DNA of 64,000 nt from Streptomyces hundungensis (GTDB taxonomy: Bacteria > Actinomycetota > Actinomycetes > Streptomycetales > Streptomycetaceae), in contig NZ_CP032698.1 of assembly GCF_003627815.1 (NCBI RefSeq), positions 682,001-746,000 on the forward strand, read 5' to 3'. Made by a program: the position numbers and the translations under genes. The notes under the pieces were generated by a model that saw only the letters and a list, made by a program, of their open reading frames with translations, had not been told where the DNA came from and searched no databases. Positions 8,478 through 64,000 of this stretch are shown here, piece after piece (within the stretch, counting starts at the first letter, position 1; each line of letters starts with the position of its first letter).

Positions 8478-8626
8478 ACCGCGCTCGTCACCTTCGGCCG
8501 GTGGACATCGACCGCCATCGGCCGGCGCGCCTCGCCATGCGAAGAGGTCAACGGTCAACCACCGTTCCAGCGTGGTCAGTTGATGAGTGCGACGAGTAGT
8601 CTGCGGCTGACCAGTAGTGTGCGGTC

Positions 8627-9502: not shown

Positions 9503-9507
9503 CCCTT

Positions 9508-9523
9508 CCGGCCATGGCGCCGG
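9508..9523. terminator. Hairpin between convergent kinase and MFS genes
   Basis: CCGGC and GCCGG arms around a six-base loop, six bases after the kinase stop, with no U run. Its position between convergent genes favours a terminator role. Confidence 0.4.
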
Positions 9524-9597
9524 CCAACTCGACCAGAGAGCATGACCTCGCCGGTGGGGCCGCCGGGCGGAGTAATTGACGTATACAGGCGGGGAGT

Positions 9598-27019: not shown

Positions 27020-27799
27020 TCAGGAGGCCGCTCGGGCGCACAGGGCGCGTAGGACGTCCGCCACCTCTCCGGCGCGCTCGTTGGTGAAGAAGTGGCCGCC
27101 GTGGAAGGTGTGCATCCGGAAGGTGGCAGCCGTGTGCTGTTCCCACGCCTGGACGTCGGCGGGGTCGGTGAGCGGATCCGCGTTCCCCATGAGGGCGACG
27201 ACGGGGCAGGCGACGGTACCCCCGGGCTCCGGCCGGTAGCGGCCGTGGGCGGCCAGATCGCCGCGGATGACGGGCAGGAATACGCTCCGCAGGACGGGGT
27301 GGTCCAGGAGCCCGGAGTCGTCGCCCAGCGACCGGAGCAGATCGACGAGCGGCTGGTCCGGATCCTCGGTGCCGTCCCCGGGCGGGACGATGGACGGCAG
27401 GCCGAGCCGGGACGGCGCGGGGTGCCCGGAGGCCACGAGGACCAGCCGCCGCTGGTCGGCCGTCCTGCGGACGACCTCGTACGCCACGACCGCTCCCAGG
27501 CTGTGCCCGAACAGGACGACGGGCCCGCCCTCGTGCCACGCGGCGAACGCCTGGGCCAACTCGTCGGCGAGGGCGTGCACATCGGTGAAGGGCGGGCTCG
27601 AACGGCGCTCCGCCCGGCCCGGGTACTGGACGCAGGCAGGCCGCGCGGTGTCGGCGAGCCGGCCTGCGAGGCCCCGGTAGGAGCCGGCCGAGCTGCCCGA
27701 GTGCGGGAAGAACAGGAGCTGCGGGTGGCCGTCGGCGGACGCCGTGGTCGGGAAGGGGCGGATGTGCGGGGCGAACCCTGACGGTGCGTCAGATCGCAT
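27020..27799 (-). CDS. Type II thioesterase
   Basis: A 259-residue thioesterase of the GrsT/TEII family, which removes wrong or stalled groups from carrier proteins of polyketide and peptide synthases. Seen: LLFFPHSGSSAGSYRGLA (oxyanion region), VQYPGRAERR, the nucleophile GHSLGAVVAYEV, and the His in TFHGGHFFTNE. The ATG at 27799 overlaps the end of the GntR gene by 11 bases, so the two are cotranslated. The only carrier protein in this window is at 35783, on the opposite strand. A role for this enzyme there is possible but unproven. Confidence 0.87.
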   Translation of the reverse strand: MRSDAPSGFAPHIRPFPTTASADGHPQLLFFPHSGSSAGSYRGLAGRLADTARPACVQYPGRAERRSSPPFTDVHALADELAQAFAAWHEGGPVVLFGHSLGAVVAYEVVRRTADQRRLVLVASGHPAPSRLGLPSIVPPGDGTEDPDQPLVDLLRSLGDDSGLLDHPVLRSVFLPVIRGDLAAHGRYRPEPGGTVACPVVALMGNADPLTDPADVQAWEQHTAATFRMHTFHGGHFFTNERAGEVADVLRALCARAAS

Positions 27800-28478
27800 G
27801 AAGGCGTTCGAGGGTCCGCTTCAGTTCTTCGCGCAGGGTTCGCCCGGCGGACTCCGCGTCCGCGCGCGCGATGGCCTCCACCAGCAGGGTGTGGCCGTCG
27901 TCGCCGTGGTTGGGGTCCCCGGAGCGCAGGCCGAGCAGCTCCACCAGGTCGATCAGCCCCTGGCGCAGTACGGGCACGAACTCGGCGAACAGGCCGGTCA
28001 GTACGGGGTTGTGGGCCGCGGCGACCACGGCCGCGTGGAGGGCGATGTCGGCGTCGACGAACTCCGCGTCACCCGCTTCCGCTGCGTCCCTGCGGTGGGC
28101 CAGCGCCTTGTCGAGGGCGACGAGGTCATCGTCGGTGCGGCGCTGCGCGGCCATCTGCGCGGCTTCGACCTCGATGAGCATGCGCACTTCGTACACATCG
28201 GTGACGGCCGCGCGCCGCAGGCTCGTGGGCCAGTCCTCCTGGGGCTTGGTGGCGATGACGAAGACACCGGCGCCCTGACGCGGCTGCACGAGTCCCGCGC
28301 CGGCCAACGCGCGCAGGGCCTCACGCACGGTCGAGCGTCCCACGCCGAGGATCTGGGCGAGCGCGTTCTCGCCGGGAAGTTTGGTCCCGACGCTCCACTC
28401 GCCCTGCGTGATCTGCTCGCGCAGCCGCTCAGTGGCCTGCTCGACCAAGGGAGTTGGCCGCAGTGCGCCCAGTGGCAT
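27789..28478 (-). CDS. GntR-family regulator, FadR/FCD subfamily
   Basis: A 229-residue regulator with an N-terminal winged helix (residues 8-72; LPGENALAQILGVGRSTVREAL) and a C-terminal FCD ligand domain (about 90-220). In the FCD domain the metal ligands Asp and His are visible in DADIALHAAVVAAAHN and a late His in DDGHTLLVEAI. FCD regulators usually sense small carboxylates or amino acids. It overlaps the thioesterase gene and is divergent from leuA, with only 69 bases between its start and the leuA leader ATG. It could therefore regulate leuA and itself. Confidence 0.9.
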   Translation of the reverse strand: MPLGALRPTPLVEQATERLREQITQGEWSVGTKLPGENALAQILGVGRSTVREALRALAGAGLVQPRQGAGVFVIATKPQEDWPTSLRRAAVTDVYEVRMLIEVEAAQMAAQRRTDDDLVALDKALAHRRDAAEAGDAEFVDADIALHAAVVAAAHNPVLTGLFAEFVPVLRQGLIDLVELLGLRSGDPNHGDDGHTLLVEAIARADAESAGRTLREELKRTLERLHAI

Positions 28479-28667: not shown

Positions 28668-30464
28668 ATGGCTACATCCCCCACCCAGGCTTTCGCCACG
28701 CTGCGCACCCCGTCGGGGCCCGTTCCCGAGGGTGCTCCCGCGTGGAACCCCCAGCGGCCGAGCGCGATGCCGCACGAGCGGTACCGGCCCGCGCACGACC
28801 GCGTGGCGCTGCCGCTGACCGACCGGACCTGGCCGTCGCGCCGACTGGAGCGGGCCCCGCTCTGGGTGCCGGTCGATCTGCGCGACGGCAACCAGGCGCT
28901 GGCCGAGCCCATGGACACCGAGCGCAAGCGCCGGATGTTCGACCTGATGGTCACCATGGGCTACAAGGAGATCGAGGTCGGCTACCCCTCCGCCAGCCAG
29001 ACCGACTTCGACTTCGTGCGCCACCTGGCCACCAGCGGCGCCGTGCCCGAGGACGTGACCATCTCCGTCTTCACCGCCGCCCGCAACGACCTGATCGACC
29101 GCACCATCGCCTCCATCGAGGGGCTCCCCCGCACCGTCGTGCACCTCTACACCGCGACCGCACCGGCCTGGCGCGACGTGGTACTCGGCCGCTCCCGCAC
29201 CGAGCTGCACGGGATGATCCTGGACGCCGCCGGCTATCTGATGCGGCGCGCCGAGGAGCAGTCGGGAGCCGACATCCGGTTCGAGTTCTCCCCCGAGGTC
29301 TTCAACCTCACCGAACCGGACTTCGTCCTGGAGGTCTGCAACAGCATCACCGAGCTGTGGGACGCCTCCCCTGACCGGCCGGTGATCCACAACCTGCCGG
29401 CCACCGTGGAGATCGCCACCCCCAATGTGTACGCGGACCAGATCGAGTACATGGACCGTCACCTGGCCCGGCGCGACGCGGTGATCCTCTCCGTGCATCC
29501 CCACAACGACCGCGGCACGGGCGTCGCGTGCGCCGAACTCGCGGTGCTGGCAGGGGCGCAGCGGGTGGAGGGCTGTCTGTTCGGCAACGGCGAGCGGACC
29601 GGCAACGTCGACCTCGTCACGCTGGCCCTGAACCTGTACGCGCAGGGCGTGAACCCCATGGTCGACTTCTCCGACATCGACGCCGTGCGCGAGGTGGTGG
29701 AGCACTGCAACCGGCTGCCCATCCACCCGCGCCACCCCTATGTCGGTGAGCTCGTGCACACGGCGTTCTCCGGGACCCACCAGGACGCCATCTCCAAGGG
29801 CATGGCCCACCACACCAAGCGGGCGGCGGAGCTGGGCGTCCCGGCGAAGCAGGCGCCGTGGGAGGTCCCGTACCTGCCGATCGATCCGGGTGACATCGGG
29901 CGCACGTACGAGGAAGTCATCCGCATCAACTCGCAGTCCGGCAAGGGCGGCATCGCCCACCTGCTCCACACCCACCACGGTCTGGACCTGCCCAAGCGGA
30001 TGCGTCCGGACTTCTCCGGCGCGGTGCAGCGGGCCACCGACGCGAGCGGGCAGGAGCTCTCGCACAAGGACCTGTGGGACCTGTTCCGCACGCACTACAT
30101 CGCCCCGGCCCAGGACGGTCCGGTCCTGCTCAACTCGTGGAGCACCACGGAGACCGGACCCGGTGAGCACCGGTTCAGCTGTGTCCTGACCGCGAACGGC
30201 CAGGAACGGTCCTACGAGGGCACCGGAAACGGGCCGCTGTCCGCCTTCACCCAGGTCCTCACCAGCGCCGGCATCGCCGTCGACATCCTGAACTACGCCG
30301 AGCACGCCACCAGCGTGGGGCCCGGCAGCCCCGCGGTCGCGTACGCCGAGTGCCGGGTGGACGGGGAAACGTTCTGGGGCGCCGGCTGGGACACCTCCAT
30401 CCTCGCGGCGTCGGTGCAGGCCGTGCTCGCCGCCGTCAACCGGGCCGGACAGGCCGGACGGTGA
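28668..30464 (+). CDS. leuA: 2-isopropylmalate synthase
   Basis: The first committed enzyme of leucine synthesis, joining acetyl-CoA and 2-ketoisovalerate; 598 residues, cytoplasmic. Seen: the HMGL-like TIM barrel (about 65-345) with [14 protein letters not shown] (catalytic Arg/Asp), [33 protein letters not shown] (metal His) and [20 protein letters not shown]. The C-terminal LeuA dimer/regulatory domain (about 470-590) is complete, so leucine feedback is expected. As I recall the usual housekeeping Streptomyces LeuA, this one differs at many positions and has a longer N-terminus, so it may be a second copy. The leader attenuator gives a second level of leucine control. Confidence 0.92.
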
Positions 30465-30524
30465 CCGTGCTCCACGTGTCCTCGGTCCGGGTGAGCGGCG
30501 CGCCGTAACCCGGCCCGACGGCGG

Positions 30525-30566
30525 GTTGCCGGTGGGTGTGCCGACCCGGCGCGTCCCACCGGCAAC
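30525..30566 (+). terminator. leuA terminator hairpin
   Basis: A perfect 12-base inverted repeat, GTTGCCGGTGGG (30525-30536) and CCCACCGGCAAC (30555-30566), 60 bases after the leuA stop. No U run follows, as is common in actinomycetes. Confidence 0.7.
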
Positions 30567-30651
30567 ACCCTTGACCAACACCCTTACGAGGGGCCAACTC
30601 ACCTGCTCAGCAAGGGCTTTGCTGCCGCCCGGATCGCTCGTTAAGGTAACA

Positions 30652-30676
30652 CCTCAGAGGACCTGAGGACCTGAGG
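30652..30676 (+). promoter_or_regulatory. Palindrome and tandem octamer upstream of the exporter gene
   Basis: CCTCAG-N5-CTGAGG (30652-30668) overlaps two tandem copies of AGGACCTG (30658-30673) and a third partial copy, 40 bases before the start codon. This is a good operator candidate for a dimeric regulator controlling the exporter and possibly the whole downstream run. Confidence 0.5.
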
Positions 30677-30714
30677 TCAACCGCACCCCTACCGACGGAA
30701 ATGAACGGTTCAGG

Positions 30715-31944
30715 ATGAAAAAAGGGCAACTCGGCTTCTTGGCCGGTACGCACGTGGTCAACGACCTGTACCAGGGCGCGATCCCCGCGATGCTGCCGCT
30801 CCTGATGTCACAGCGGCACTACAGCTATGCCGCCGTCTCCGGTCTCGCGTTCGCCGCGAGCGGCGTGTCCAGTCTGTTCCAGCCGCTGTTCGGGCTGCTG
30901 TCCGACCGCAAACCACGGTCCTGGCTGGTGCCCGTCGGGTTCGCGACGGCGGCGTTCGGCGTGGTGGCCGCCGGCCTTGCCGGCAACTACCTCCTCACCT
31001 GGCTGTGTGTCGCCCTCGCGGGCATCGGCATAGCGGCCTACCACCCGCCGGCCACCAGCGAGGCCCGTGCGGCCGGCGGCTCCTCGCAGAAGGCCATGAG
31101 CGTCTTCTCCGTCGGCGGCACGGTCGGCGGCTCGCTCGCCCCCGCCCTCGTCACCCTCGTGATCGGCTCCCTGGGGTTCTCCAGCAGCTACCTCCTGGCC
31201 ATCCCCGCCCTGGCCATGGTGGCGCTCTGGCTGCTGCGCGGGCCCTGGATGCGGTGGCGCGGGTACACACCGGCGGCACCGCTGGTCATCCGCGCCCCGG
31301 CCGGCACGGGCGCGCAGGACGGCGGACGCAGGGACGACTGGCGCTCCTTCACCCGCCTGGTGGTCGTCATCATCGGCTGGTCGATCCCGTTCGTCACGGT
31401 CACCTCGCTGGTGTCCCTGCACGCCCAGCGCGACCTGGGGCAGTCCGCCGGGGCAGGGGCCACCGTGCTCACCTGCTACACCGCGGCGGGAGCTGTCGGC
31501 ACCCTGCTCGGCGGCTGGGTCGGTGACCGCTACGGCCGGATGGCCTCGGTCCGGATCGGCTATCTCGTGGCCCTGCCCGCCCTGTTGGGCATCGCCTGGG
31601 CTCCCGCGTTCCCCGTCCTGGTGGTGAGCACGGTGGTGTTCGGCGCCGCGATGTTCCTGCCGTTCGCCGCCCAAGTCACCCTCGCCCAGGACTACTTGCC
31701 CAACCGCCCGGGCACGGCCAGCGGACTGACCCTGGGCCTCGCCATGGCAGCGGGCGGCCTGTGCTCCCCCCTGTTCGGCTGGCTGGCCGACCGGGCCGGT
31801 CTTGGCGCGACGTTCTACGCGCTGCTCGCCGTCTTCGTGGCTCCCGTCGTCCTGGCACTGCGCCTCCCCGACCACAAGGCCGCCGGGACCGAGCACCCGG
31901 CCCCCACCTCGGCCAACGCCACGGAGTTTTCCCGGAACACCTGA
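30715..31944 (+). CDS. MFS exporter, fosmidomycin-resistance (Fsr) family
   Basis: A 409-residue, 12-helix major facilitator of the Fsr group of small-molecule exporters. Seen: QLGFLAGTHVVNDLYQGAIP at helix 1, the highly typical Fsr HVVNDLYQG start, YHPPATSEARAA in the helix 4/5 region, a charged central loop (about 195-215), and GGWVGDRYGRM (motif A of the second half). It is the first gene of the long co-directional run to 43849, with a 186-base gap to the cupin gene. In context it could export the product of the carrier-bound pathway downstream, which is inference. Confidence 0.87.
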   Translation: MKKGQLGFLAGTHVVNDLYQGAIPAMLPLLMSQRHYSYAAVSGLAFAASGVSSLFQPLFGLLSDRKPRSWLVPVGFATAAFGVVAAGLAGNYLLTWLCVALAGIGIAAYHPPATSEARAAGGSSQKAMSVFSVGGTVGGSLAPALVTLVIGSLGFSSSYLLAIPALAMVALWLLRGPWMRWRGYTPAAPLVIRAPAGTGAQDGGRRDDWRSFTRLVVVIIGWSIPFVTVTSLVSLHAQRDLGQSAGAGATVLTCYTAAGAVGTLLGGWVGDRYGRMASVRIGYLVALPALLGIAWAPAFPVLVVSTVVFGAAMFLPFAAQVTLAQDYLPNRPGTASGLTLGLAMAAGGLCSPLFGWLADRAGLGATFYALLAVFVAPVVLALRLPDHKAAGTEHPAPTSANATEFSRNT

Positions 31945-32130: not shown

Positions 32131-32499
32131 ATGAAGATTAACTGGGACGACCACGAGGAACTGAAGGCCGAAGGAATCGCATTGGCCCGGCGGTTCGCAT
32201 TCGGCCAGGAGATGTCCTGCCTCAAGGTGGTGGCCGACCAGTCCGGTGACCTGAACCTCCCGCCGCACTGGCACGAGAACGAGCAGTGGGTCGTGGTCAC
32301 CGAGGGGTCCATTCGCTTCGTCTGCGAGGGCACCGAGTACGAACTCAATTCCGGTGACGTGGCCTACATCCCCGCGCGTTCGCGGCACACCGCCACCTTC
32401 GTCGGAGAAGAGGGAGCCGTGCTCCTGGAATTCTCCGCTCCTCCGCGGCTCGACCTCGCCCCCGGCTCGATCGTTCCGTCGTCGATGAAGTTCGACTGA
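32131..32499 (+). CDS. Single-domain cupin protein
   Basis: A 122-residue cupin beta-barrel with an intact metal site: HWHENEQW (two His and a Glu) in motif 1 and GDVAYIPARSRHTATF (fourth ligand His) in motif 2. Small cupins in biosynthetic clusters act as isomerases, dioxygenases or cyclases, or bind a pathway intermediate; the role here cannot be fixed. It has a GGGGGACC ribosome site, 43 bases before the adenylation gene, so it belongs to the same transcript as the adenylation, P450, carrier and SDR genes. The substrate is likely a free or carrier-bound acyl/amino-acyl compound, which is inference. Confidence 0.83.
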   Translation: MKINWDDHEELKAEGIALARRFAFGQEMSCLKVVADQSGDLNLPPHWHENEQWVVVTEGSIRFVCEGTEYELNSGDVAYIPARSRHTATFVGEEGAVLLEFSAPPRLDLAPGSIVPSSMKFD

Positions 32500-32542
32500 G
32501 CCGGGCGACGGCCAGCAACTGCATCGAACGGGGGCATCGATC

Positions 32543-34078
32543 ATGAGCAGCATGTACGGCTCGACCAACGGGGAAGCGACCATCCACGACGCGTTCGCGC
32601 GGGTGGCCCGGCAGTTCCCCGATCGCCCGGCCGTGGTCTCGGCCGCCGGCGCGACGACGTACGCGGAGTTGGCCGCCGAGGCCCGGCGCATCGCCCACCA
32701 CCTGGGGGGACTCGGGATCCGGCCCGGCAGTGTCGTTCCCGTGGTGGCCCGCAGGTCTTCTGAGCTGGCCGCGGTCCTCCTGGGCATCCTGATGGCCGGC
32801 GGCGCCTACGGAATCCTCGACGTGCGGTGGCCGGCCGCCCGGATCGCCCAGTTCCTGGACACCATGGGCGCCCAGGTCGTCCTCGCGGACACCGCGGGAT
32901 CCGCCGGCCTGGAACAGGCGGCCATCGGTCACCTCACCTTCAGCGAGCTGCTGGACCCGGCGGCGCCCCAGAGCGCTCCGTCCCGCCCGCTGCCCACGGT
33001 CGCACCCGACGCGTGCGCCACCGTCTTCTGGACCTCCGGAAGCACCGGTACCCCCAAGGCGGTGCTCTCCCCGCACCGGGCGACCACCCGGCTGTTCACT
33101 CCCGAGCCCTTCATGGACTTCGGCGAACGACCGGTGATGATCCATGCGGCGGCGGTGGCCTGGGACGCCTTCACCCTGGAGTTGTGGGGCATGCTGCTCA
33201 CCGGCGGCACCGCGGTCGTCCACGACGGCGACCTCCTGCTGCCACCTGCGATCCGCGCCTACATCAGCGACTTCGGCGCGACCCACCTCTTCCTCACCCC
33301 GTCGCTCTTCGATGTGATCGCGGCCGGCGACATCGACTGCCTCGCCGGTCTGCGCGCGGTGCTCCTCGGCGGCGACAAGCCGTCACCCGCCAGCTGCCGC
33401 AGGCTCTTCGAGGCCCATCCCGGCATGGAGTTGTACAACGGGTACGGCCCCGTCGAGGCGTGCGTGTTCGCCAGCACTCATCGCATCACGGAGGCCGACA
33501 CCGCCCAGGCGGGCGGCATTCCGGCCGGCCGGCCGGTGCCCAGCACGGATCTCCATGTCGTACGGGACGGCTCCCTCGTGCCCCCCGGCGAGACCGGTGA
33601 GATCGCCATCGGCGGCGCCGGGCTCGCTCTCGGCTATCTGAACGCCCCCGAGCAGACCGCGGCCGCCTTCACGAACGTGCTGGTCGACGGGCACGAGCGC
33701 CGGGTCTACCTGACCGGCGACCACGGCTGGATCGACGACGTCGGCCGTCTGCGTTTCGCCGGCCGCAAGGACGCCCAGCTCAAAGTCGCCGGGCACCGGA
33801 TCGAGCCTGCGGAGATCGAGTCGGCGGCCCGCTCGCTGGGCAGCAGGCGGTCGGTCCTGATGCCGATCCCCGACCGCAGCGGGACCCCGCGCATCATCCT
33901 GTTCGCGGAGACCCCCGATGACTCCATGACGGAAGCGGACATGAAGGGCCGGCTGGGGAAGCTGCTGCCCGCCTACATGGTGCCCGCCAAGGTCCACTTC
34001 GTCTCCGCCATGCCGCTGCTGGAGAACACCAAGATCAACAAGCGCGAACTCTCGGCACGCTTCGGCTACGTCTCCTGA
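32543..34078 (+). CDS. Stand-alone NRPS-type adenylation enzyme
   Basis: A 511-residue amino-acid-activating enzyme of the NRPS A-domain family. Seen: A3 FWTSGSTGTPKAV, A4 region AAVAWDAFTLELWG (with the Asp typical of alpha-amino-acid binding), A5 LYNGYGPVEACVFAS, A7 YLTGDHG, A8 RKDAQLKVAGHRIEP and A10 NTKINKREL with the catalytic Lys. There is no condensation, carrier or thioesterase domain attached. It should form an aminoacyl-AMP and load the separate carrier protein at 35783. The Asp favours an alpha-amino acid, but I do not assign the substrate. It is codirectional with the P450, carrier and SDR genes, with short gaps. Confidence 0.9.
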   Translation: MSSMYGSTNGEATIHDAFARVARQFPDRPAVVSAAGATTYAELAAEARRIAHHLGGLGIRPGSVVPVVARRSSELAAVLLGILMAGGAYGILDVRWPAARIAQFLDTMGAQVVLADTAGSAGLEQAAIGHLTFSELLDPAAPQSAPSRPLPTVAPDACATVFWTSGSTGTPKAVLSPHRATTRLFTPEPFMDFGERPVMIHAAAVAWDAFTLELWGMLLTGGTAVVHDGDLLLPPAIRAYISDFGATHLFLTPSLFDVIAAGDIDCLAGLRAVLLGGDKPSPASCRRLFEAHPGMELYNGYGPVEACVFASTHRITEADTAQAGGIPAGRPVPSTDLHVVRDGSLVPPGETGEIAIGGAGLALGYLNAPEQTAAAFTNVLVDGHERRVYLTGDHGWIDDVGRLRFAGRKDAQLKVAGHRIEPAEIESAARSLGSRRSVLMPIPDRSGTPRIILFAETPDDSMTEADMKGRLGKLLPAYMVPAKVHFVSAMPLLENTKINKRELSARFGYVS

Positions 34079-34154
34079 GGGCCGGCTCTCCTCCGCACCG
34101 CGCCACCCTTTCCCCTTGTCATTTGGCGGTCCCATACAGGGAAGGACTCTCGTT

Positions 34155-34586
34155 TTGAGTACGCAAAGCCGCACGGAAGAGAAATTTTCCTTAGCGCTGG
34201 AATCCATACAGAGCAAGCGCCGGATCGAGCGGGTCATGGAAGCGGCGAACGCTCTCCTCGACAGGTATGCGAAGGAGCAGGACCCACAAGAGCGCCTGCG
34301 CCTCGCCTTCGAACTCATTCGCCGCAATTTCACCGAAGAAGTCTCCATTTCCTTCGGTGACCTCTCCTTCACGACCGATGAGAAGGCCCCCGAAGAAGGG
34401 AGCCGCGGCACGACCCGATTCCACTGTGACATCGTCGGCGCCGAGGGGCGCTCGGGAACACTCACCGCATTTTACACAGCCCCCGGTTCCATGGGGCTCA
34501 CCGATTCCGAATGGCTCGATGCGATGCGTCTGCTGGCCGGTATCAGCGGCTTGGGCGTCGGAGGGTACGTCACGTGCTCGGGGTAA
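34155..34586 (+). CDS. Unknown protein, possibly GAF-like
   Basis: A 143-residue protein from a TTG start at 34155, which has GGAAGGA eight bases upstream; an ATG at 34116 has no site. Seen: an N-terminal helical region (SKRRIERVMEAANALLDRYA) followed by beta strands and a final helix (SGTLTAFYTAP, SDSEWLDAMRLL-like), a pattern that resembles a GAF sensor. I do not recognise the family with certainty. Its stop lies inside the P450 gene, which starts 13 bases earlier at 34574, so the two are translationally coupled. It could be an accessory or sensor for the pathway. Confidence 0.65.
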   Translation: MSTQSRTEEKFSLALESIQSKRRIERVMEAANALLDRYAKEQDPQERLRLAFELIRRNFTEEVSISFGDLSFTTDEKAPEEGSRGTTRFHCDIVGAEGRSGTLTAFYTAPGSMGLTDSEWLDAMRLLAGISGLGVGGYVTCSG

Positions 34587-35752
34587 GTACCGAAGAAATT
34601 CCCGCCAGGCCCTCGGAAAGCCCCGCGAATCTGCTGGCGCGGCCTTACTGGTACCGGGAGTTGCCTCCGGGAACCGATGTGCACCGGCTCGACGACGGGC
34701 TGTTCGCCGCCACCGGGAACGCCGCCGTGCACGAGGTGCTCACCCACCCCGGGATCGTGGCCGAGCACCCGCTCAAGGCCAGCGCCCGAGCCTTCGGGCC
34801 CAATGTGCTCGACGCCGACGGCCCCGCCCACCGGGCCTTTCGCGCCCTGCTCGCTCCGGTCCTGTCCGGGGGGCGGATCGCGGAGTACAAGCAGACCCTG
34901 ATGCCCCGGCTCATCGACGCGCTCGTGGACGCCATCGCCGGGACCGAGACGGACGACTTCTACAACTCCTTCGCGCACAAGGTCCCTTACGGCATCGTCT
35001 GCACCATCCTCGGCATCGACCCGGCCTTGGAGGACCGCTTCCACAAGCTGACCCGCCCGCTGGCCCGGCTCCTGGACTATCCCACCGAGGAGACCGCCCA
35101 GACCCATGCCAACGTCAGCGAGCTGCTGAGGTTGATCGAGGAGCAGCGCGCGGTGGGGGCGGCCGACCCGCGGTCCCTCCTGGAGACCATCGAGCGGACC
35201 CGCGACCGCAAGGGCATCACCCTCACGGACAGCGAAGTGCGTTCGACGGCCCTGCTGTTCTTCCTGGCCGGCACCGAGACCAGCAGCGCGTTCATCACCT
35301 CGCTGGTGTACTGCATGGGGCGTTCCATCTTCGATCTGGACGAACTCCGTGACGAAGTGGCCCGGGACGAGTTCATCGAAGAGGTCCTGCGGCTGTACCC
35401 ACCGGTGCAGACGATCGTGCGCTTCGCGGCCGACGACGTGACGGTCCACGGCGTCGACATCCCACGGCACTCGGCGGTGCTCGCCTCGATCGCCGGGGCC
35501 AACCGGGATCCACGGATCTTCGACCATCCCGACCGGTTCACCACCGGCAGAAGCCTGAAGGGCTCCATCCCCTTCGCGGTCGGGGCGCACGCCTGCCCGG
35601 GAGCGATGCTCGCCAAGGCGGAGTTCTCGCTGCTCGTCGAGAGGCTCGTCGAGCGCTGCTCGGAGGTGGTCGTCACCCGCGACCAACTGGCCATGGAGAG
35701 CCAGTCGTTCGCGCACCCGGCCGGTTTCTCCGTGCATTTCAGGACCAAGTAA
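34574..35752 (+). CDS. Cytochrome P450
   Basis: A 392-residue bacterial class I P450. Seen: the I-helix AGTETSS (232-238) with the oxygen-activating Thr, the K-helix EEVLR (ExxR), and the heme-binding loop FAVGAHACPGAMLA with Cys341. The GTG at 34574 has GGAGGG at eight bases. It lies between the adenylation and carrier genes. In known clusters that pair a free-standing or A-PCP loading unit with a P450, such as the aminocoumarin tyrosine beta-hydroxylase NovI, the enzyme oxidises the carrier-bound amino acid at the beta carbon. That role fits but is inferred. Ferredoxin partners are not encoded nearby. Confidence 0.93.
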   Translation: MLGVSTEEIPARPSESPANLLARPYWYRELPPGTDVHRLDDGLFAATGNAAVHEVLTHPGIVAEHPLKASARAFGPNVLDADGPAHRAFRALLAPVLSGGRIAEYKQTLMPRLIDALVDAIAGTETDDFYNSFAHKVPYGIVCTILGIDPALEDRFHKLTRPLARLLDYPTEETAQTHANVSELLRLIEEQRAVGAADPRSLLETIERTRDRKGITLTDSEVRSTALLFFLAGTETSSAFITSLVYCMGRSIFDLDELRDEVARDEFIEEVLRLYPPVQTIVRFAADDVTVHGVDIPRHSAVLASIAGANRDPRIFDHPDRFTTGRSLKGSIPFAVGAHACPGAMLAKAEFSLLVERLVERCSEVVVTRDQLAMESQSFAHPAGFSVHFRTK

Positions 35753-35782
35753 TCGCATGTCAAGCAAGAGAAAGAGGAAGCC

Positions 35783-36019
35783 GTGGAAGGCAAGATAGCG
35801 CTGCTCCGTGAGTGGCTCGGCGACCTGCACGAGGAGCCCGTCAGCATCCAGGGCGACACGGACCTCGTCGAGTCGGGCGTGGTGACCAGCCTCCAGTTCG
35901 TCCAGATGGTGATCGAGATCGAGCGCCTGCACGGCCGGAAGCTGGACCCGGGCGTCATCAACATCGAGTCCATGCGGACCCTCGACGCCATCAACACGAC
36001 CGTGTTCCAGGCTGCCTGA
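35783..36019 (+). CDS. Stand-alone acyl/peptidyl carrier protein
   Basis: A 78-residue, four-helix carrier protein starting with a GTG and a GAAAGAGGAAG ribosome site. Seen: TDLVESGVVTSLQFVQMVIEIE, in which the Ser of VTSLQ is the expected phosphopantetheine site; the usual Asp before it is a Thr here. It should accept the aminoacyl group from the adenylation enzyme and present it to the P450 and SDR. Its TGA overlaps the ATG of the SDR gene (TGATG), a tight coupling. No phosphopantetheinyl transferase lies in the window. Confidence 0.85.
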   Translation: MEGKIALLREWLGDLHEEPVSIQGDTDLVESGVVTSLQFVQMVIEIERLHGRKLDPGVINIESMRTLDAINTTVFQAA

Positions 36020-36759
36020 TGGGCTCGGACACCTCCCGTGTCGCAGTGGTCTCCGGGACCTCGTCCGGGATCGGTGCGGCGGTCGCGACGGAGTTCCTGA
36101 ACCGGGACTACACCGTCGTCGGCCTGTCCCGGCGGGGAAACCCCACGCTCGCGCAGGAGAAGGGGTACGTCGACTGCGTGGCCGACCTCCGGGACGACTC
36201 AGCCGTGCGGTCGGCGCTCGACTCGGTGTCGTCCACGACGGCCGGCGGTGTGCGAGCCGTGGTGCTCAACTCCGGTGTCTCGCCCGACCCGGTCGACCTC
36301 CGCAAGCTCGACTGGCAGGTGGCGGCCGACGCGTACGAGAACAATGTGCACACCGCCCTGAGTCTCATCCAGGCGACGGCACCTCTGCTCGGGCGAGGCG
36401 GCGACGGCTCGCTCACCTTCGTCGGGGCGAGCCTGGCCAACGGCTACCAGCCCGACCGGTGGGCCTACGCGGCGAGCAAGGCCGCGATGACCGCCCTGAT
36501 GCGGGCCTGCTCGGTCGAGTTCGCCGACGACGGCGTCGTGGCGAACGAGGTGCGACCGGGCCCGGTCGCAACTGCCATGACTTTGGCGGGACTTGACGGC
36601 GAGGTGAGCGATCAGGTCATCCGCGCCATCAACGAGGGCTTCGGCACGGACTGGCTCAAGGCGCCGCGCACCGTGGCCGAATGGATCGTCTCCATCGCCG
36701 AGTTCCCGTCGAACGGGCCCACGGGCCAGGTCTTCAACTACAGCCGCAAGGTGCTGTGA
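36019..36759 (+). CDS. Short-chain dehydrogenase/reductase
   Basis: A 246-residue classical SDR. Seen: the cofactor loop VVSGTSSGIGAAVA, the LSRRG segment that favours NADP, LNSGVSPDP (the NNAG-like position), Ser in FVGASLANG and the catalytic WAYAASKAA (YxxxK). It starts at the stop of the carrier gene. By analogy with NovJ/NovK of aminocoumarin synthesis, it could oxidise the beta-hydroxyl made by the P450 to a ketone, or reduce a ketone. This is inference; the family is clear. Confidence 0.9.
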   Translation: MGSDTSRVAVVSGTSSGIGAAVATEFLNRDYTVVGLSRRGNPTLAQEKGYVDCVADLRDDSAVRSALDSVSSTTAGGVRAVVLNSGVSPDPVDLRKLDWQVAADAYENNVHTALSLIQATAPLLGRGGDGSLTFVGASLANGYQPDRWAYAASKAAMTALMRACSVEFADDGVVANEVRPGPVATAMTLAGLDGEVSDQVIRAINEGFGTDWLKAPRTVAEWIVSIAEFPSNGPTGQVFNYSRKVL

Positions 36760-36828: not shown

Positions 36829-37650
36829 ATGTCCAACTACCCTTCGTCCGAGCAGCTTCTCGACCTGTTCAACTGGGCCTCGCCCGCCATGCTGGTGACG
36901 GACGCCGACGGTCTCGTCGTGCTGGCGAACAAGGCGGCCGTGGAGCTCCTCGCGGACCGGGCGAGCTCCGGCACCAAGCTCGCCGACGCCCTGGGCATCA
37001 ACGGCTACACCGCTCTGCTCGCGGCCGGTGAGCCGGTGGAGAACCTGGACGCCACCTTCGTCAACCCCGACTTCGCGTCCGGCTACGCCAACGTCGGTTT
37101 CGGCGAGGTCGAGGGCAGCACCTACGGCTTCTGGGCGCTGCGCCCCGTCACCACGCACCCGACCCCCTCCTCGCAGGCCGGTGAGGGCAACTCCACCGCG
37201 CAGGCGTGGATCAGCCAGGTCGACCGGAGCAACGCGGCGTACACCCCCGTGGGCGAAGACGCCGTCAAGTTCATCCGGGCGTACTACGACAACTGCCCGG
37301 TCGCCATCCACCTCATCGAGGAGGACGGCACCGTCGCCCACGCCAACTGGAAGGACATCGCGATCGTCGGTGCCAGCGAGCAGCCGGACACCTACGTCGG
37401 TCACCACATCCGTCACATCTACGCCGACCAGGAGGTCGTGGAGGACTTCCTCGGCCGCTGGGGCGAGGACGCTCCGATCATCGACTTCCGTGCGGACTTC
37501 CTCAACAAGGGCGAGCGGGTGCCCGTGGTGATCTTCTCCACCGCCAAGGTCGAGGACAACAAGCTCAAGAACACCCGCTGCTTCGTCTTCCCGGACAGCC
37601 ACCCGGACCGCAAGCGGGACAAGGTCAAGGCGCTGGACCTCAACTTCTGA
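36829..37650 (+). CDS. Tandem PAS-domain protein without output domain
   Basis: A 273-residue protein of two PAS-like domains: about 1-105 (LLDLFNWASPAMLVTDADGL, VVLANKAAVELLA) and about 145-270 (YDNCPVAIHLIEEDGTVAHANWK, IRHIYADQEVVEDFLGRW). There is no kinase, cyclase, HTH or membrane segment, so it is a pure ligand or redox sensor, or a small-molecule-binding protein. It has a GAAAGG ribosome site, 69 bases after the SDR gene and 119 bases before the nitrate transporter gene. PAS domains can bind heme or flavin; no ligand can be fixed here. Confidence 0.8.
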   Translation: MSNYPSSEQLLDLFNWASPAMLVTDADGLVVLANKAAVELLADRASSGTKLADALGINGYTALLAAGEPVENLDATFVNPDFASGYANVGFGEVEGSTYGFWALRPVTTHPTPSSQAGEGNSTAQAWISQVDRSNAAYTPVGEDAVKFIRAYYDNCPVAIHLIEEDGTVAHANWKDIAIVGASEQPDTYVGHHIRHIYADQEVVEDFLGRWGEDAPIIDFRADFLNKGERVPVVIFSTAKVEDNKLKNTRCFVFPDSHPDRKRDKVKALDLNF

Positions 37651-37769: not shown

Positions 37770-39149
37770 ATGGCTGACACCACCGCCGGGCGGGGCCGCT
37801 GGCTCACCGGCTGGGATCCCGAGGACGAGGACGCCTGGGACAGGGGCGGCGACCGCATCGCCCGCCGCAACCTGATCCTCTCCGTCCTCGCCGAGCACAT
37901 CGGCTTCTCGGTGTGGACCCTGTGGTCCGTGCTCGTCCTGTTCATGTCCCCCGCCATCGGCCTCGGTTTCAACCCGGGTGAGAAGTTCCTCCTGGTCGCC
38001 ACCCCGACCGTCGTCGGCGCGCTGCTGCGCCTGCCGTACAGCTACGCGGTGACCCGGTTCGGCGGGCGCAACTGGACCGTGTTCGCCACCGCGATCCTGC
38101 TGGTGCCCGCGCTGCTCGCCCTGTACTTCGTGCAGCGCCCCGGCACCCCGCTGTGGGTGTTCCTGGTGATCGGCGCCACGGCCGGCGTCGGCGGCGGCAA
38201 CTTCGCCTCCTCGATGACGAACATCACCGCGTTCTACCCGCAACGCCATCAGGGCTGGGCCCTCGGGCTCAACGCGGGCGGCGGCAACCTCGGCGTGGCG
38301 GCGGTCCAACTCGTCGGCCTCGCGGTCATCTCCCTCGCCGGCAACACCCACCCCTCCTATGTCGCGGCCGTCTATCTGCCGCTGATCGTGGTCGTGGCCC
38401 TGCTCGCCGCGTGGAAGATGGACAACGTCGACGCCGTACGGGCCGAACCCGGCGCCCAGCGCGAGGCGGCCCGGCACCGTGACACCTGGTGGATCTCCCT
38501 CCTGTACATCGGCACGTTCGGCTCGTTCATCGGCTACGGCTTCGCCTTCGGTCTCGTCCTACAGAACGAGTTCGGCTCCACCCCGCTCCAGGCGGTCGGC
38601 TACACCTTCCTCGGCCCGCTGCTCGGGTCCTTCTCACGCCCGCTGGGCGGCAAGCTGGCCGACCGCAAGGGCGGCGCACGGGTCTCGTTGTGGAACTTCC
38701 TCGGCATGGGCGCCGGCACCGTCGTGCTCATCGTCGCCGCGGGCCTGCACTCCTTCGCGCTGTTCATCGGGGGGTTCACCGCGCTGTTCGTGCTCAGTGG
38801 CCTCGGCAACGGGTCGACGTACAAGATGATCCCGGCGGTGTTCGCGAAGAAGGCCGAGGACGAGATCACTCGCGGCCACGACGCGAGCGGGGCCTTTGCC
38901 CGCGCCCGCCGGCTGTCGGGCGCGGTCATCGCGATCGCCGGTGCGGTCGGCGCGCTCGGCGGTGCCGCCATCAACCTCGCGTTCAAGCTGTCGTACGCGA
39001 ACGGCTCCAGCTCCGGCATCCCGGCCTTCGTGGTCTTCCTCGCCTACTACGCGCTGTGCGTCGCCATCATCCGCTTCGTCTATCTGCGCCCTTCTGCCAC
39101 GGGCGGCGGGCACACCACGAAGAGCGTCAAGGAAGCCAGCCATGTCTGA
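37770..39149 (+). CDS. narK: Nitrate/nitrite transporter (NNP family)
   Basis: A 459-residue, 12-helix MFS protein of the nitrate-nitrite porter family. Seen: RLPYSYAVTRFGGRNW and the NNP signature in GGGNFASSMTNITAFYPQ and GLNAGGGNLGVAAVQ, with the conserved Arg in RLPYS, then a second signature in FLSGLGNGSTYKMIP-like sequence. It imports nitrate or exchanges nitrate and nitrite. The start overlaps nothing, but its stop overlaps the start of the nitrate reductase gene by eight bases. No GlnR box is obvious in the 119 bases upstream. Confidence 0.92.
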   Translation: MADTTAGRGRWLTGWDPEDEDAWDRGGDRIARRNLILSVLAEHIGFSVWTLWSVLVLFMSPAIGLGFNPGEKFLLVATPTVVGALLRLPYSYAVTRFGGRNWTVFATAILLVPALLALYFVQRPGTPLWVFLVIGATAGVGGGNFASSMTNITAFYPQRHQGWALGLNAGGGNLGVAAVQLVGLAVISLAGNTHPSYVAAVYLPLIVVVALLAAWKMDNVDAVRAEPGAQREAARHRDTWWISLLYIGTFGSFIGYGFAFGLVLQNEFGSTPLQAVGYTFLGPLLGSFSRPLGGKLADRKGGARVSLWNFLGMGAGTVVLIVAAGLHSFALFIGGFTALFVLSGLGNGSTYKMIPAVFAKKAEDEITRGHDASGAFARARRLSGAVIAIAGAVGALGGAAINLAFKLSYANGSSSGIPAFVVFLAYYALCVAIIRFVYLRPSATGGGHTTKSVKEASHV

Positions 39150-41238
39150 ACTCGGCCCGCCACTGCGGGAGGTGGCGACCCACTGCCCGTACTGCGCGTT
39201 GCAGTGCGGTACGCGCCTTGCCGGTGACCGGGAGACCGGCGTGGTGGTGCGGCCCGACGATTTCCCGGTCAACCGGGGCCGGCTGTGCCAGAAGGGGTGG
39301 ACCGCCCCCGCGGTCCTGTCCGCCACCGACCGGCTGACCCGGCCGCTGGTCCGCCGCCGCGACGGCCGGCTCGCCGAGGCGTCCTGGGACGTCGCGCTGG
39401 AGAGGGTGGCCGGGGAGCTGCGCCGCATCCGCGCCGAGCACGGCCCGGACGGTGTGGCGGTCTTCGGTGGCGGCGGGCTCACCAACGAGAAGGCGTATCT
39501 GCTGGGTAAGTTCGCCCGTCTCGCGCTGGGGACCAGCCAGATCGACTACAACGGCCGGTTCTGCATGTCGTCGGCGGCCGCGGCGGGCAACGCGGCGTTC
39601 GGCGTGGACCGGGGTCTGCCGTTCCCGGTCACCGACCTCCAGGGTGCGCGGACGGTACTGCTGGCGGGTGCGAACGTCGCCGAGACGATGCCGCCGCTGA
39701 TGCAGCACCTCGACGGGGCCGAGCTGATCGTCATGGATCCGCGCCGGACCGCCAGCGCCCAGCGGGCGGCGCTGCACCTGCAACCCGCGCCGGGCACCGA
39801 TCTGGCGCTCGCGCTCGGCCTGTTCCACATCGCCGCCGTGGACGGTCTGCTCGACCGGAACTACATCCAGGACCGCACCCGGGGCTTCGAAGCCGCGCTG
39901 CGGCGCGCGATGGACTGGTGGCCCGAGCGGGTGGAAGCCGTCACGGGCATCCCCGCGAGCGACCAGCGCGCCGCCGTACACATGCTCGCGAGGGCGGGCG
40001 GCGCCTATGTGCTGACGGGCCGCGGAGTGGAGCAGCACAGCACGGGCACCGACACGGTGGCGGGCTTCATCAACCTCGCCCTCGCCCTCGGCCTGCCGGG
40101 CCGCGCGGGCAGCGGATACGGGTGTCTGACCGGGCAGGGCAACGGTCAAGGCGGCCGCGAGCACGGGCAGAAGGCCGACCAGTTGCCCGGCTATCGGTCC
40201 ATCACCGATCCGGCGGCGCGGGCCCATGTCGCCGCCGTGTGGGGCGTGGCGCCGCAAGAGCTGCCGGGTCCCGGACGCAGCGCCTATGAACTCCTGGACG
40301 CCCTGGGCGGCGACCGGGGCCCGCGGGCACTGCTGGTGTTCGGGTCGAACCCGGCCGTCTCGGCCCCGCACTCCACACGGGTGACCGAGCGGCTCGCAGC
40401 CCTCGATCTGCTGGTGGTGGCCGACTTCGTGCCGTCCGAGACGGCCCGCCTGGCCGATGTGGTGCTGCCCGTCACCCAGTGGGCCGAGGAGGAGGGCACC
40501 CTGACGAATCTGGAGGGCCGGGTGCTGCGCCGCCGCGCGCGGCTTTCGCCGCCGGGGCAGGTGCGCAGCGACCTCCAGGTCCTGCACGAACTCGCGGTAC
40601 GCCTGGGCGAGCCCGCGAGCCGCTACCCCACGGTCCCGCAGGAGGTCTTCGACGAACTGCGCGCCGCCTCCCGGGGCGGCAGGGCCGACTACGCGGGTAT
40701 CTCCTACGAGCGCCTCGACGCCGGGGAGAGCCTGCACTGGCCCTGCCCGGACACCCCCGACCCCCACCCGGGCACGCCCCGGCTCTTCCTCGACCGGTTC
40801 GAACACCCCGACGGCAGGGCGCGGTTCGCCGCCGTGGACCACCAGGGCCCGGCGGAGGAGCTCAACCCCCACTACCCGCTCCACGCGACGACCGGCAGGG
40901 TCCTGGCGCACTACCAGTCGGGTGCGCAGACCCGCCGCGTGGCCGAACTCAACGACGCCGTGCCGGGGCCCTTCGTCGAGATGCACCCCGACACCGCGCT
41001 CCGGTCCGGGGTGTCCGACGCGGGCCTCGCCCGGGTCATCTCCGCGCGCGGCAGCATGACGGCCCGCGTCCGGGTCGATCCGACGATGCGTCTGGACACC
41101 GTGTTCGCGCCCTTCCACTTTCCCGGCGAGGGCCGGGCCAACCTGTTCACCCATCCGGCCCTTGACCCGCACAGCGGGATGCCCTCGTTCAAGGTGTGCG
41201 CCGTGCGGGTCGAGCCCGTGTCAGGAGTCGCGCCGTGA
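39142..41238 (+). CDS. nasA: Assimilatory nitrate reductase catalytic subunit
   Basis: A 698-residue molybdopterin oxidoreductase that reduces nitrate to nitrite in the cytoplasm. Seen: the [4Fe-4S] motif HCPYCALQCG with the fourth Cys in GRLCQKGW, YNGRFCMSSAAAAGN, the molybdopterin segments (GCLTGQGNGQGGREHGQKAD) and a C-terminal dinucleotide-binding half with HATTGRVLAHYQSG. The length is that of the Nas/Nap type without a fused [2Fe-2S] domain; that domain is in the next gene. The ATG overlaps the transporter gene, and the stop overlaps the next start as GTGA. Confidence 0.93.
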   Translation: MSELGPPLREVATHCPYCALQCGTRLAGDRETGVVVRPDDFPVNRGRLCQKGWTAPAVLSATDRLTRPLVRRRDGRLAEASWDVALERVAGELRRIRAEHGPDGVAVFGGGGLTNEKAYLLGKFARLALGTSQIDYNGRFCMSSAAAAGNAAFGVDRGLPFPVTDLQGARTVLLAGANVAETMPPLMQHLDGAELIVMDPRRTASAQRAALHLQPAPGTDLALALGLFHIAAVDGLLDRNYIQDRTRGFEAALRRAMDWWPERVEAVTGIPASDQRAAVHMLARAGGAYVLTGRGVEQHSTGTDTVAGFINLALALGLPGRAGSGYGCLTGQGNGQGGREHGQKADQLPGYRSITDPAARAHVAAVWGVAPQELPGPGRSAYELLDALGGDRGPRALLVFGSNPAVSAPHSTRVTERLAALDLLVVADFVPSETARLADVVLPVTQWAEEEGTLTNLEGRVLRRRARLSPPGQVRSDLQVLHELAVRLGEPASRYPTVPQEVFDELRAASRGGRADYAGISYERLDAGESLHWPCPDTPDPHPGTPRLFLDRFEHPDGRARFAAVDHQGPAEELNPHYPLHATTGRVLAHYQSGAQTRRVAELNDAVPGPFVEMHPDTALRSGVSDAGLARVISARGSMTARVRVDPTMRLDTVFAPFHFPGEGRANLFTHPALDPHSGMPSFKVCAVRVEPVSGVAP

Positions 41239-63939: not shown

Positions 63940-64000
63940 GGCGGTGACTCCTTGGTCGTGGGGCACGGCCCCGATGGAGCTGCATTGACGTTTCTCGATG

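What the first reader, a model, noticed from the sequence alone, without database searches (positions are those of the whole stretch)
32131..36759. Free-standing carrier-bound amino-acid oxidation unit without an assembly line
Seen: cupin, stand-alone A domain, unknown protein, P450, stand-alone carrier and SDR, several of them coupled by overlaps or tight gaps. Established: in aminocoumarin synthesis an A-PCP unit (NovH), P450 (NovI) and SDR-type enzymes (NovJ/K) make beta-hydroxy and beta-keto amino acids. Inference: this run loads an amino acid, oxidises its beta carbon and releases a small product, with the Fsr exporter in front. I recall no described cluster with this gene order and no condensation domain.
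Basis: partly seen in the sequence, partly recalled or inferred. Interest (0 to 1): 0.8.

Follow-up and report, generated by a model that had tools for sequence, protein, structure and literature searches.

The report
Nitrite-fed carrier-bound amino-acid pathway
A Streptomyces gene cluster appears to load a leucine-like amino acid onto a small carrier protein, oxidise it, and probably join it to nitrogen from nitrite supplied by the cluster's own nitrate reductase, which would make a small molecule with a rare nitrogen-nitrogen bond.

Summary
In detail: cupin, stand-alone A domain, unknown protein, P450, stand-alone carrier and SDR are there, with no condensation domain within about 130 kb. 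The unit is larger. In 10 of 10 loci (window plus 9 relatives) it includes the MFS exporter and a two-PAS protein; a LeuA paralogue lies upstream wherever the contig reaches. A NarK-nitrate reductase-flavoprotein module follows in 7 of 10 loci. It is distinct from the housekeeping nitrate genes, and the window has no siroheme nitrite-reductase domain, so nitrite should be its end product. In 295 Streptomyces genomes this NarK type (70% identity or more) occurs at 16 places; all 15 that I read lie in candidate biosynthetic clusters, eight with CreD/CreE-like nitrous-acid genes, two L-alanosine-like. In 392 Streptomyces genomes the PAS protein occurs in 8, four with this cassette, four alanosine-like. 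Best reading: a leucine-type aminoacyl carrier oxidised by P450/SDR and nitrosated or diazotised with nitrite. All chemistry is inferred; no product is known.

The parts
27020..27799 (-). type II thioesterase, possible release or editing enzyme
   Evidence: Thioesterase PF00975 5e-32; a match beside GntR-LeuA in 7 of the 8 relatives whose contig reaches there, only 52 residues in L010, none in the 396 bases held in L006; in 24 genomes other than the own copy 57-67% homologues only in G392 and G302, best elsewhere 44%
27789..28478 (-). GntR/FCD-type regulator
   Evidence: PF00392 and PF07729; next to LeuA in 8 of 8 relatives whose contig reaches it; the pair also occurs in G019 without the cassette
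28668..30464 (+). 2-isopropylmalate synthase paralogue (LeuA), apart from housekeeping LeuA
   Evidence: NCBIfam PRK03739 809 bits and leuA_yeast 731 bits, both over cut-off; separate clade; 72-83% homologues only in cassette genomes G392, G375, G302 and in G019 of 24, other copies 51-57%
30715..31944 (+). MFS transporter, probable exporter
   Evidence: MFS_1 1e-29; 66-93% in 9 of 9 relatives; 36-41% homologues at three of four alanosine-like loci
32131..32499 (+). single-domain cupin with metal-ligand motif (HWHENE...H)
   Evidence: Cupin_2 3e-14; 82-100% in 9 of 9 relatives; both His of HxH in 10 of 10
32543..34078 (+). stand-alone adenylation domain, aliphatic alpha-amino-acid code
   Evidence: AA-adenyl-dom over cut-off; code DALFLGGVFK in 9 of 10 loci, DALFMGGVFK in L012 (positions by recalled GrsA numbering)
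34155..34586 (+). 143-aa protein of unknown fold, cassette hallmark; start TTG, uncertain
   Evidence: no Pfam family; 55 other proteins found, 31 of them aligned at 61-88% identity; 47-88% in 9 of 9 loci; two source names say GAF, one says histidine kinase
34574..35752 (+). cytochrome P450; start uncertain
   Evidence: PF00067 4e-28; 72-94% in 9 of 9 loci; heme and I-helix motifs
35783..36019 (+). stand-alone carrier protein
   Evidence: PP-binding 2e-05, weak DltC-like hit under cut-off; TSL serine in 10 of 10 loci
36019..36759 (+). short-chain dehydrogenase
   Evidence: adh_short 1e-25; YAASK in 10 of 10 loci
36829..37650 (+). two-PAS-domain protein without output domain, shared with alanosine-like clusters
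   Evidence: PAS_8 and PAS_4 just over cut-off; 72-95% in 9 of 9 loci; 56 invariant columns over 24 rows including four alanosine-like loci
37770..39149 (+). NarK-type nitrate/nitrite transporter, dedicated paralogue
   Evidence: NarK model TIGR00886 280 bits, cut-off 312; bimodal identity in 295 genomes
39142..41238 (+). NasC/NasA-type molybdopterin nitrate reductase, dedicated paralogue
   Evidence: PF00384 2e-59; best NCBIfam NasC 754 bits, cut-off 1100; clade separate from housekeeping NasA
41235..42632 (+). FAD/NAD(P)H oxidoreductase with BFD-like [2Fe-2S] domain, NirB-like without siroheme domain
   Evidence: no NIR_SIR in the window
42629..43849 (+). NirB N-terminal-like FAD oxidoreductase without siroheme domain
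   Evidence: matches NirB model positions 1-383 of 794, under the model's cut-off

Best explanation
This is a compact biosynthetic cluster for a small exported molecule with a nitrogen-nitrogen bond (nitroso/diazeniumdiolate or diazo). The A domain loads a leucine-type amino acid, helped by a dedicated LeuA, onto the free-standing carrier. The P450 oxidises it on the carrier (at N, or at Cbeta followed by SDR oxidation to a ketone). NarK imports nitrate, the dedicated nitrate reductase with its two flavoproteins turns it into nitrite, and nitrite or a derived NOx reacts with the carrier-bound nitrogen, with the PAS protein, unknown protein and cupin as candidate helpers or catalysts. The thioesterase releases the product and the MFS protein exports it. 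Shown here: gene content, conservation, the separate LeuA and nitrate paralogues, and the company this nitrate module keeps. Inferred: every chemical step.
For: MFS-cupin-A-unknown-P450-carrier-SDR-PAS collinear in 10 of 10 loci (window plus 9). The NarK-NasA-flavoprotein module follows in 7 of 10, with a NarK remnant in L013. NasA of the cassette, alanosine-like and G009 loci forms one clade apart from housekeeping NasA. Survey of 295 Streptomyces genomes: dedicated-type NarK at 16 places (at most 5 candidates scored per genome); 15 read: 2 cassette, 2 alanosine-like with diaminopropionate genes, 10 with a shared acyl-ligase plus SRPBCC protein, 1 short contig with CreD/CreE. Full CreD and CreE-like genes in 8 of the 15; CreD of L076 is over its NCBIfam cut-off, CreE is named by position beside CreD and a Pfam FAD-NAD(P)-binding hit. 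Four housekeeping NarK loci that I chose as controls had none of these. The alanosine-like locus without the module (G096) has CreE-like and CreD genes instead. No siroheme nitrite reductase domain in the window; nearest over 1.2 Mb away. Review PMC11705231 section 21 (read): some alanosine clusters lack CreD/CreE and are thought to use nitrate/nitrite reductases. PMC10777205 (passages): 72 of 134 ava-type clusters with a diazotase gene lack the nitrous-acid pair.
Against: No product or assay. Three of 10 cassette loci lack the nitrate module, so it is not obligatory. Eight module loci also have CreD/CreE, so the module may do something else there (nitrite export, nitrogen supply). The window genome holds a CreD-like gene about 460 kb away (C1:255108-256487, 71%), so nitrite could also come from elsewhere. 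The A domains of this cassette and the alanosine-like loci are only about 30% identical. The unknown protein showed no profile similarity to the alanosine-like GAF protein. No protein here was matched to a known N-N-forming enzyme. The ten ligases cannot be called diazotases: the three scanned score 80-84 bits on the AvaA6 model, cut-off 975. LeuA-GntR also occurs without the cassette in G019.
Confidence: 0.6

Rival explanations
1. One reading: the unit makes a beta-hydroxy or beta-keto amino acid on a carrier and releases it; the nitrate genes are an unrelated neighbour.
For: P450, carrier and SDR match the NovI/NovJ/NovK logic (recalled). Polyoxypeptin PlyQ/PlyR/PlyS is proposed to hydroxylate leucine on a free-standing carrier with thioesterase release (PMC3943440, passages). 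Three of 10 loci lack the nitrate module.
Against: The nitrate module is a separate paralogue that recurs beside different N-N-type clusters. The PAS protein is shared with alanosine-like clusters.
Confidence: 0.22
2. Alanosine-like end product: the P450 N-hydroxylates the loaded amino acid and nitrite or NO gives an N-nitrosohydroxylamine (diazeniumdiolate). A chemical sub-case of the best explanation.
For: Shared PAS protein with the four alanosine-like loci L022-L025, a related carrier and MFS, and in three of the four the same nitrate module. A hydroxylamine precursor reacts with nitrite to a diazeniumdiolate without enzyme (PMC5878181, passages). Valdiazen induces two LeuA-like genes in Burkholderia (same passages).
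Against: The SDR has no obvious role. The alanosine-like loci have an acyl-CoA-dehydrogenase-type enzyme, not a P450, at that place. Nitrosation there is attributed by the review to a cupin-AraC protein, AlnA, as a hypothesis, not to a PAS protein.
Confidence: 0.3
3. NO-dependent nitration: the P450 uses NO from nitrite and O2 to nitrate the carrier-bound residue, as TxtE does for tryptophan.
For: A dedicated nitrite source beside a P450; weak TxtE model hit, 50 bits.
Against: The TxtE cut-off is 500 bits and several other P450 models score higher. TxtE pathways use a NO synthase (recalled); none was recognised among the 15 window genes scanned.
Confidence: 0.07
4. The cassette makes a building block for a distant NRPS.
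For: 30 condensation domain matches elsewhere in the genome. Polyoxypeptin precedent.
Against: None within about 130 kb. The cassette is conserved as a block with its own exporter in 10 of 10 loci.
Confidence: 0.08

Closest known systems
L-alanosine clusters (aln/ala, Streptomyces alanosinicus, and alternative clusters with nitrate/nitrite reductases)
   Same: Free-standing A domain and carrier, no assembly line; in the loci found here also thioesterase, PAS protein, mostly an MFS protein, and a nitrate module or CreD/CreE. The published cluster has a cupin protein too (review).
   Different: Alanosine-like loci make diaminopropionate (SbnA/SbnB, seen in three of four), use an acyl-CoA-dehydrogenase-type oxidase and a GAF-like protein. 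Here: LeuA, P450, SDR, a single-domain cupin, another unknown protein and an aliphatic A code.
Aminocoumarin NovH/NovI/NovJ/NovK
   Same: Amino acid on a carrier, P450, SDR-type oxidation (recalled).
   Different: A and carrier are separate genes here; the P450 is not specially close to solved carrier-bound amino-acid hydroxylases; a nitrate module is present.
Fragin/valdiazen/leudiazen (ham, pvf, mgo)
   Same: Branched-chain amino acid on a carrier, cupin gene, nitrite-type nitrogen proposed.
   Different: Those use an AurF-like N-oxygenase and an NRPS-like protein with a reductase domain; here P450, SDR and no reductase domain.
Polyoxypeptin PlyQ/PlyR/PlyS leucine hydroxylation
   Same: Leucine on a free-standing carrier, P450, thioesterase (proposed there).
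   Different: There a building block for an NRPS; here no NRPS nearby, with exporter, PAS protein and nitrate module.

Membership tests
L-alanosine cluster | diaminopropionate synthesis genes SbnA/SbnB | tested here: not met
   tblastn of L022 SbnA/SbnB finds nothing in the 64-kb window at 1e-8; both are over their NCBIfam cut-offs in L022
L-alanosine cluster | free-standing A domain and carrier, no condensation domain | tested here: met
L-alanosine cluster | acyl-CoA-dehydrogenase-type N-oxidase | tested here: not met
   No match in the window; P450 in the cassette instead
L-alanosine cluster | two-PAS protein (seen in the four alanosine-like loci here, not taken from print) | tested here: met
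L-alanosine cluster | nitrite source, CreD/CreE or nitrate/nitrite reductase | tested here: met
   Nitrate module present, no CreD/CreE in the window
Aminocoumarin NovHIJK unit | fused A-carrier protein | tested here: not met
   Separate genes 32543-34078 and 35783-36019
Aminocoumarin NovHIJK unit | P450 hydroxylating the carrier-bound amino acid at Cbeta | not testable with these tools
   Best solved relatives are EryF and PikC; an entry I recall as OxyD ranks 14th
N-N bond pathway fed by nitrite | known N-N-forming enzyme (CreM/AvaA6 ligase, SznF cupin, AzpL, KtzT) | tested here: inconclusive
   No AvaA6-model hit among the best 25 of 102 for the A domain; the cupin is a single domain without the SznF diiron part; SznF, AzpL and KtzT were not searched directly
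N-N bond pathway fed by nitrite | product with an N-N bond | not testable with these tools
   needs metabolite analysis

The most novel reading that the evidence does not exclude
The two-PAS protein is the missing nitrogen-nitrogen bond-forming (nitrosating) factor shared by alanosine-type pathways. In this cluster it acts on a carrier-bound alpha-amino-beta-keto leucine made by P450 and SDR to give an alpha-diazo-beta-keto acid or its N-nitroso relative, with nitrite made on site by a nitrate reductase module that Streptomyces reuses as a plug-in nitrogen source across unrelated clusters.
Probability: 0.22. Interest if true: 0.85.

Novelty: new variant of a known kind. Interest (0 to 1): 0.62.

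Why it matters
It ties an overlooked eight-gene cassette to nitrogen-nitrogen chemistry, names a PAS protein as a candidate for the unsettled nitrosating step in alanosine-type pathways, and shows a dedicated nitrate reductase module recurring in several cluster classes. That gives a genome-mining handle for N-N compounds that searches for CreD/CreE or SznF can miss, and a possible answer to where the nitrite comes from in diazotase clusters without the nitrous-acid pair.

Tried and rejected
Homology of the unknown 143-aa protein to the GAF-like protein of alanosine-like loci: pairwise and profile comparison gave nothing (both profiles are shallow), so not claimed, though two database entries call it GAF. 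Solved structures for the PAS and unknown families: nothing significant. Promoter and terminator scan: nothing above shuffles. 'Fsr' identity of the exporter: no family support. Simple adjacency as an explanation of the nitrate genes: rejected because they are a separate paralogue with the same kind of neighbours elsewhere. LeuA as housekeeping: rejected by identity and tree. Structure prediction never ran. Distant PAS relatives in another actinobacterial family (26-30%) sit in other contexts and were not used; two of them were read in a wrong frame and left out of alignment A3. The contexts of the 67 PAS proteins were not read. In one search the scripted A code was wrong at one position for some loci and was recomputed on an alignment.

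That I found no printed description of this cluster rests on the searches in an open-licence library; the two alanosine papers I tried by id are not held, so the JACS 2023 work is known only through the review and its reference list.
Full report
What is there. The window is a Streptomyces chromosome (G000, 8.39 Mb, one contig; the genus follows from the named relatives). The reported run is real: cupin 32131-32499, stand-alone A domain 32543-34078, a 143-aa unknown protein 34155-34586, P450 about 34574-35752, carrier 35783-36019, SDR 36019-36759. Unknown/P450 and carrier/SDR overlap; the other gaps inside the run are 30 to 76 bases. Cupin HxH, heme Cys, carrier Ser and SDR Tyr-Lys are kept in 10 of 10 loci. 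No condensation domain lies in the window; the nearest of 30 in the genome is about 132 kb away.

How far it extends. In 9 of 9 the order MFS-cupin-A-unknown-P450-carrier-SDR-PAS is kept. The scan used strict peptide patterns, so 9 is a lower bound: a protein search found 56 proteins for the unknown family, one the window's own, with Streptomyces, Micromonospora and Actinokineospora among the names. In an even sample of 392 Streptomyces genomes 4 have the unknown protein, G000 included.

Upstream genes. GntR and LeuA lie upstream in 8 of 8 relatives whose contig reaches there (L011 does not). A TE match follows in 7 of these 8; in L010 it is 52 residues long, so that TE looks broken (G375 gave no TE hit), and L006 has only 396 bases left there. 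The LeuA is not the housekeeping one. In 24 genomes its 72-83% homologues occur only in G392, G375, G302 (all cassette genomes) and G019, while 51-57% homologues occur in all 24, and the tree separates them (bootstrap rough, as the tool notes). G019 has GntR-LeuA without the cassette. TE homologues of 57-67% occur only in G392 and G302 besides the own copy. A paralogous LeuA fits an A domain with a branched-chain-like code, DALFLGGVFK in 9 of 10 loci and DALFMGGVFK in one. A valine code printed as DALWMGGTFK (PMC3943440, passages) shares seven of ten positions. This is a prediction, not an assay.

A gene missing in the window strain. In 9 of 9 relatives a gene on the opposite strand just before the MFS gene encodes a homologue of amino acid--[acyl-carrier-protein] ligase (PDB 3mey, 1e-24; NCBIfam PRK07080 135 bits, cut-off 357). 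No match was found in the window strain's genome at 1e-5. Either it is dispensable or this copy of the cluster has lost a step.

The PAS protein. In the 392 genomes its relatives occur in 8, each beside a stand-alone A/carrier cluster: four with this cassette (73-100%) and four (41-44%) with a different cluster (at most six candidates were scored per genome). The latter, L022-L025, have an A domain, acyl-CoA-dehydrogenase-like protein, GAF-like protein, carrier, thioesterase, PAS and FMN reductase in 4 of 4 and SbnA/SbnB-type diaminopropionate genes in 3 of 4 (not in the stretch read of L025); in L022 SbnA and SbnB are over their NCBIfam cut-offs. This agrees with L-alanosine clusters as the review describes them, with a diaminopropionate precursor and an acyl-CoA-dehydrogenase-type oxidase (PMC11705231, section 21 read); I had no alanosine cluster sequence to compare, so 'alanosine-like' is by content. 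The review names a cupin-AraC protein, AlnA, as the putative N-N enzyme; the cupin in the window is therefore a candidate as well as the PAS protein. Across 24 rows of both kinds, 56 columns of the PAS protein are invariant, 43 of them from residue 153 on, including His161, His193 and Cys251. Much weaker relatives (26-30%) in another actinobacterial family have other neighbours.

The nitrate module. Downstream come NarK, a molybdopterin nitrate reductase and two NirB-like flavoproteins, in 7 of 10 cassette loci (window, L005, L006, L007, L009, L011, L012; not L008, L010, L013). L013 keeps a short NarK remnant at that spot, so loss is likely there. The module follows in 3 of 4 alanosine-like loci too, with a broken NarK in L025. 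The flavoproteins match only the N-terminal part of the NirB model, under its cut-off, and no siroheme domain (NIR_SIR) is in the window, so nitrite is the expected end product (inference; not tested at the other loci).

The module is a paralogue with a pattern. NasA of cassette, alanosine-like and G009 loci forms a clade apart from housekeeping NasA, with the G104 copy outside it; G000 has both kinds. Searching NarK in 295 genomes gave a dedicated type (70-100%, 16 places in 15 genomes), two places at 65%, then 63% and below (at most five candidates scored per genome and the tail of the list not shown). I read 15 of the 16 places; the second G124 copy, with the same score, was not fetched. 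Two are this cassette, two alanosine-like, ten have one kind of acyl-ligase with an SRPBCC protein, and one is a short contig with CreD/CreE. Full CreD plus CreE-like genes are in 8 of the 15 and a partial CreD in one more. CreD of L076 is over the nitrosuccinate lyase cut-off (779 against 650); CreE has no NCBIfam hit and is named by its place beside CreD and a Pfam FAD-NAD(P)-binding domain. The ligases are only superfamily relatives of AvaA6: three were scanned, at 80-84 bits against a cut-off of 975. Of the two 65% places, G196 lies beside another A/thioesterase/PhyH cluster with a carrier recognised by eye, and G233 beside none seen. As controls I picked five loci with NarK at 57-63%: four have no NasA and one (G104) has the module, and none has a CreD/CreE, A-domain or ligase match. 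The alanosine-like locus lacking the module (G096) has a CreE-like gene at its edge and CreD 11-12 kb from the PAS gene, while L022, L023 and L025 have none in the stretches read. So module and CreD/CreE look interchangeable there. But eight loci have both, which speaks against a simple either-or and leaves room for another role such as nitrite export. CreD-like genes also lie elsewhere in 13 of 18 genomes searched, the window's among them (C1:255108, 71%); the weaker of these may be a catabolic relative.

Most likely mechanism. Shown: gene content, conservation and association. Inferred: a leucine-type amino acid is adenylated and loaded; P450 oxidises it; nitrite from the dedicated reductase supplies the second nitrogen; TE releases; MFS exports. 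Two chemical endings fit. (a) N-hydroxylation then nitrosation to a diazeniumdiolate, as in alanosine and fragin; a hydroxylamine precursor and nitrite gave some diazeniumdiolate without enzyme, beside an oxime (PMC5878181, passages). (b) Cbeta hydroxylation and SDR oxidation to an alpha-amino-beta-keto thioester, then diazotisation; this uses the SDR, and the order hydroxylate-oxidise-diazotise is known from alazopeptin (recalled). I cannot decide between them.

Comparison with the known. It works like an alanosine pathway in using a free-standing carrier and an inorganic nitrogen source, but it is not one: diaminopropionate genes and the acyl-CoA-dehydrogenase-type oxidase are absent from the window. 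It resembles NovHIJK in P450 plus SDR, but the A-carrier fusion is absent and the P450 shows no special closeness. Polyoxypeptin proposes leucine hydroxylation on a free-standing carrier with thioesterase release, but for an NRPS. Nitrate reductases as nitrogen source are reported for alanosine (review), and 72 of 134 ava-type diazotase clusters were reported without the nitrous-acid pair, with an alternative route suggested (PMC10777205, passages). What appears new is this gene set, the recurrence of one dedicated module across cluster classes, and the PAS link. 'Not in print' rests on the listed searches in an open-licence library only.

Noticed in passing
window 30464-30715 and L005-L013 just upstream of the MFS gene: An amino acid--[acyl-carrier-protein] ligase-like gene present in 9 of 9 relatives was not found anywhere in the window strain's genome.
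   Followed up: partly
L085 (G196), 6851-10350: A third kind of stand-alone A/carrier/thioesterase cluster with a PhyH-type dioxygenase lies a few kb from a NarK-nitrate reductase module; carrier by eye.
   Followed up: partly
L037, L075-L082, L084: Ten clusters with an acyl-ligase, an SRPBCC protein and a quinone-oxidoreductase-like protein beside or near the nitrate module, seven of the ten also with full CreD/CreE; L037 carries a DAHP-synthase-like gene (under its cut-off) and genes labelled by eye as isochorismatase and dihydroxybenzoate-type dehydrogenase.
   Followed up: partly
L010 12126-13169; L013 from 13428: In two cassette loci without the nitrate module a 3-hydroxyisobutyrate-dehydrogenase-like gene lies downstream of the PAS gene (family scan of L010; L013 by sequence start).
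   Followed up: no
G000 C1:1311564 and C1:1325539: The genome has two more LeuA-type genes besides the housekeeping and cassette copies; condensation domains lie close by, at C1:1332218-1347987.
   Followed up: no
L033, L034, L036: Distant two-PAS relatives (26-30%) lie near AraC-cupin genes (L033, L034) and, in L033 and L036, near genes that look like type II polyketide ketosynthases; labels by eye.
   Followed up: no
window 63052-63966 (-): An open reading frame that by eye looks like an arsenite methyltransferase; not tested.
   Followed up: no
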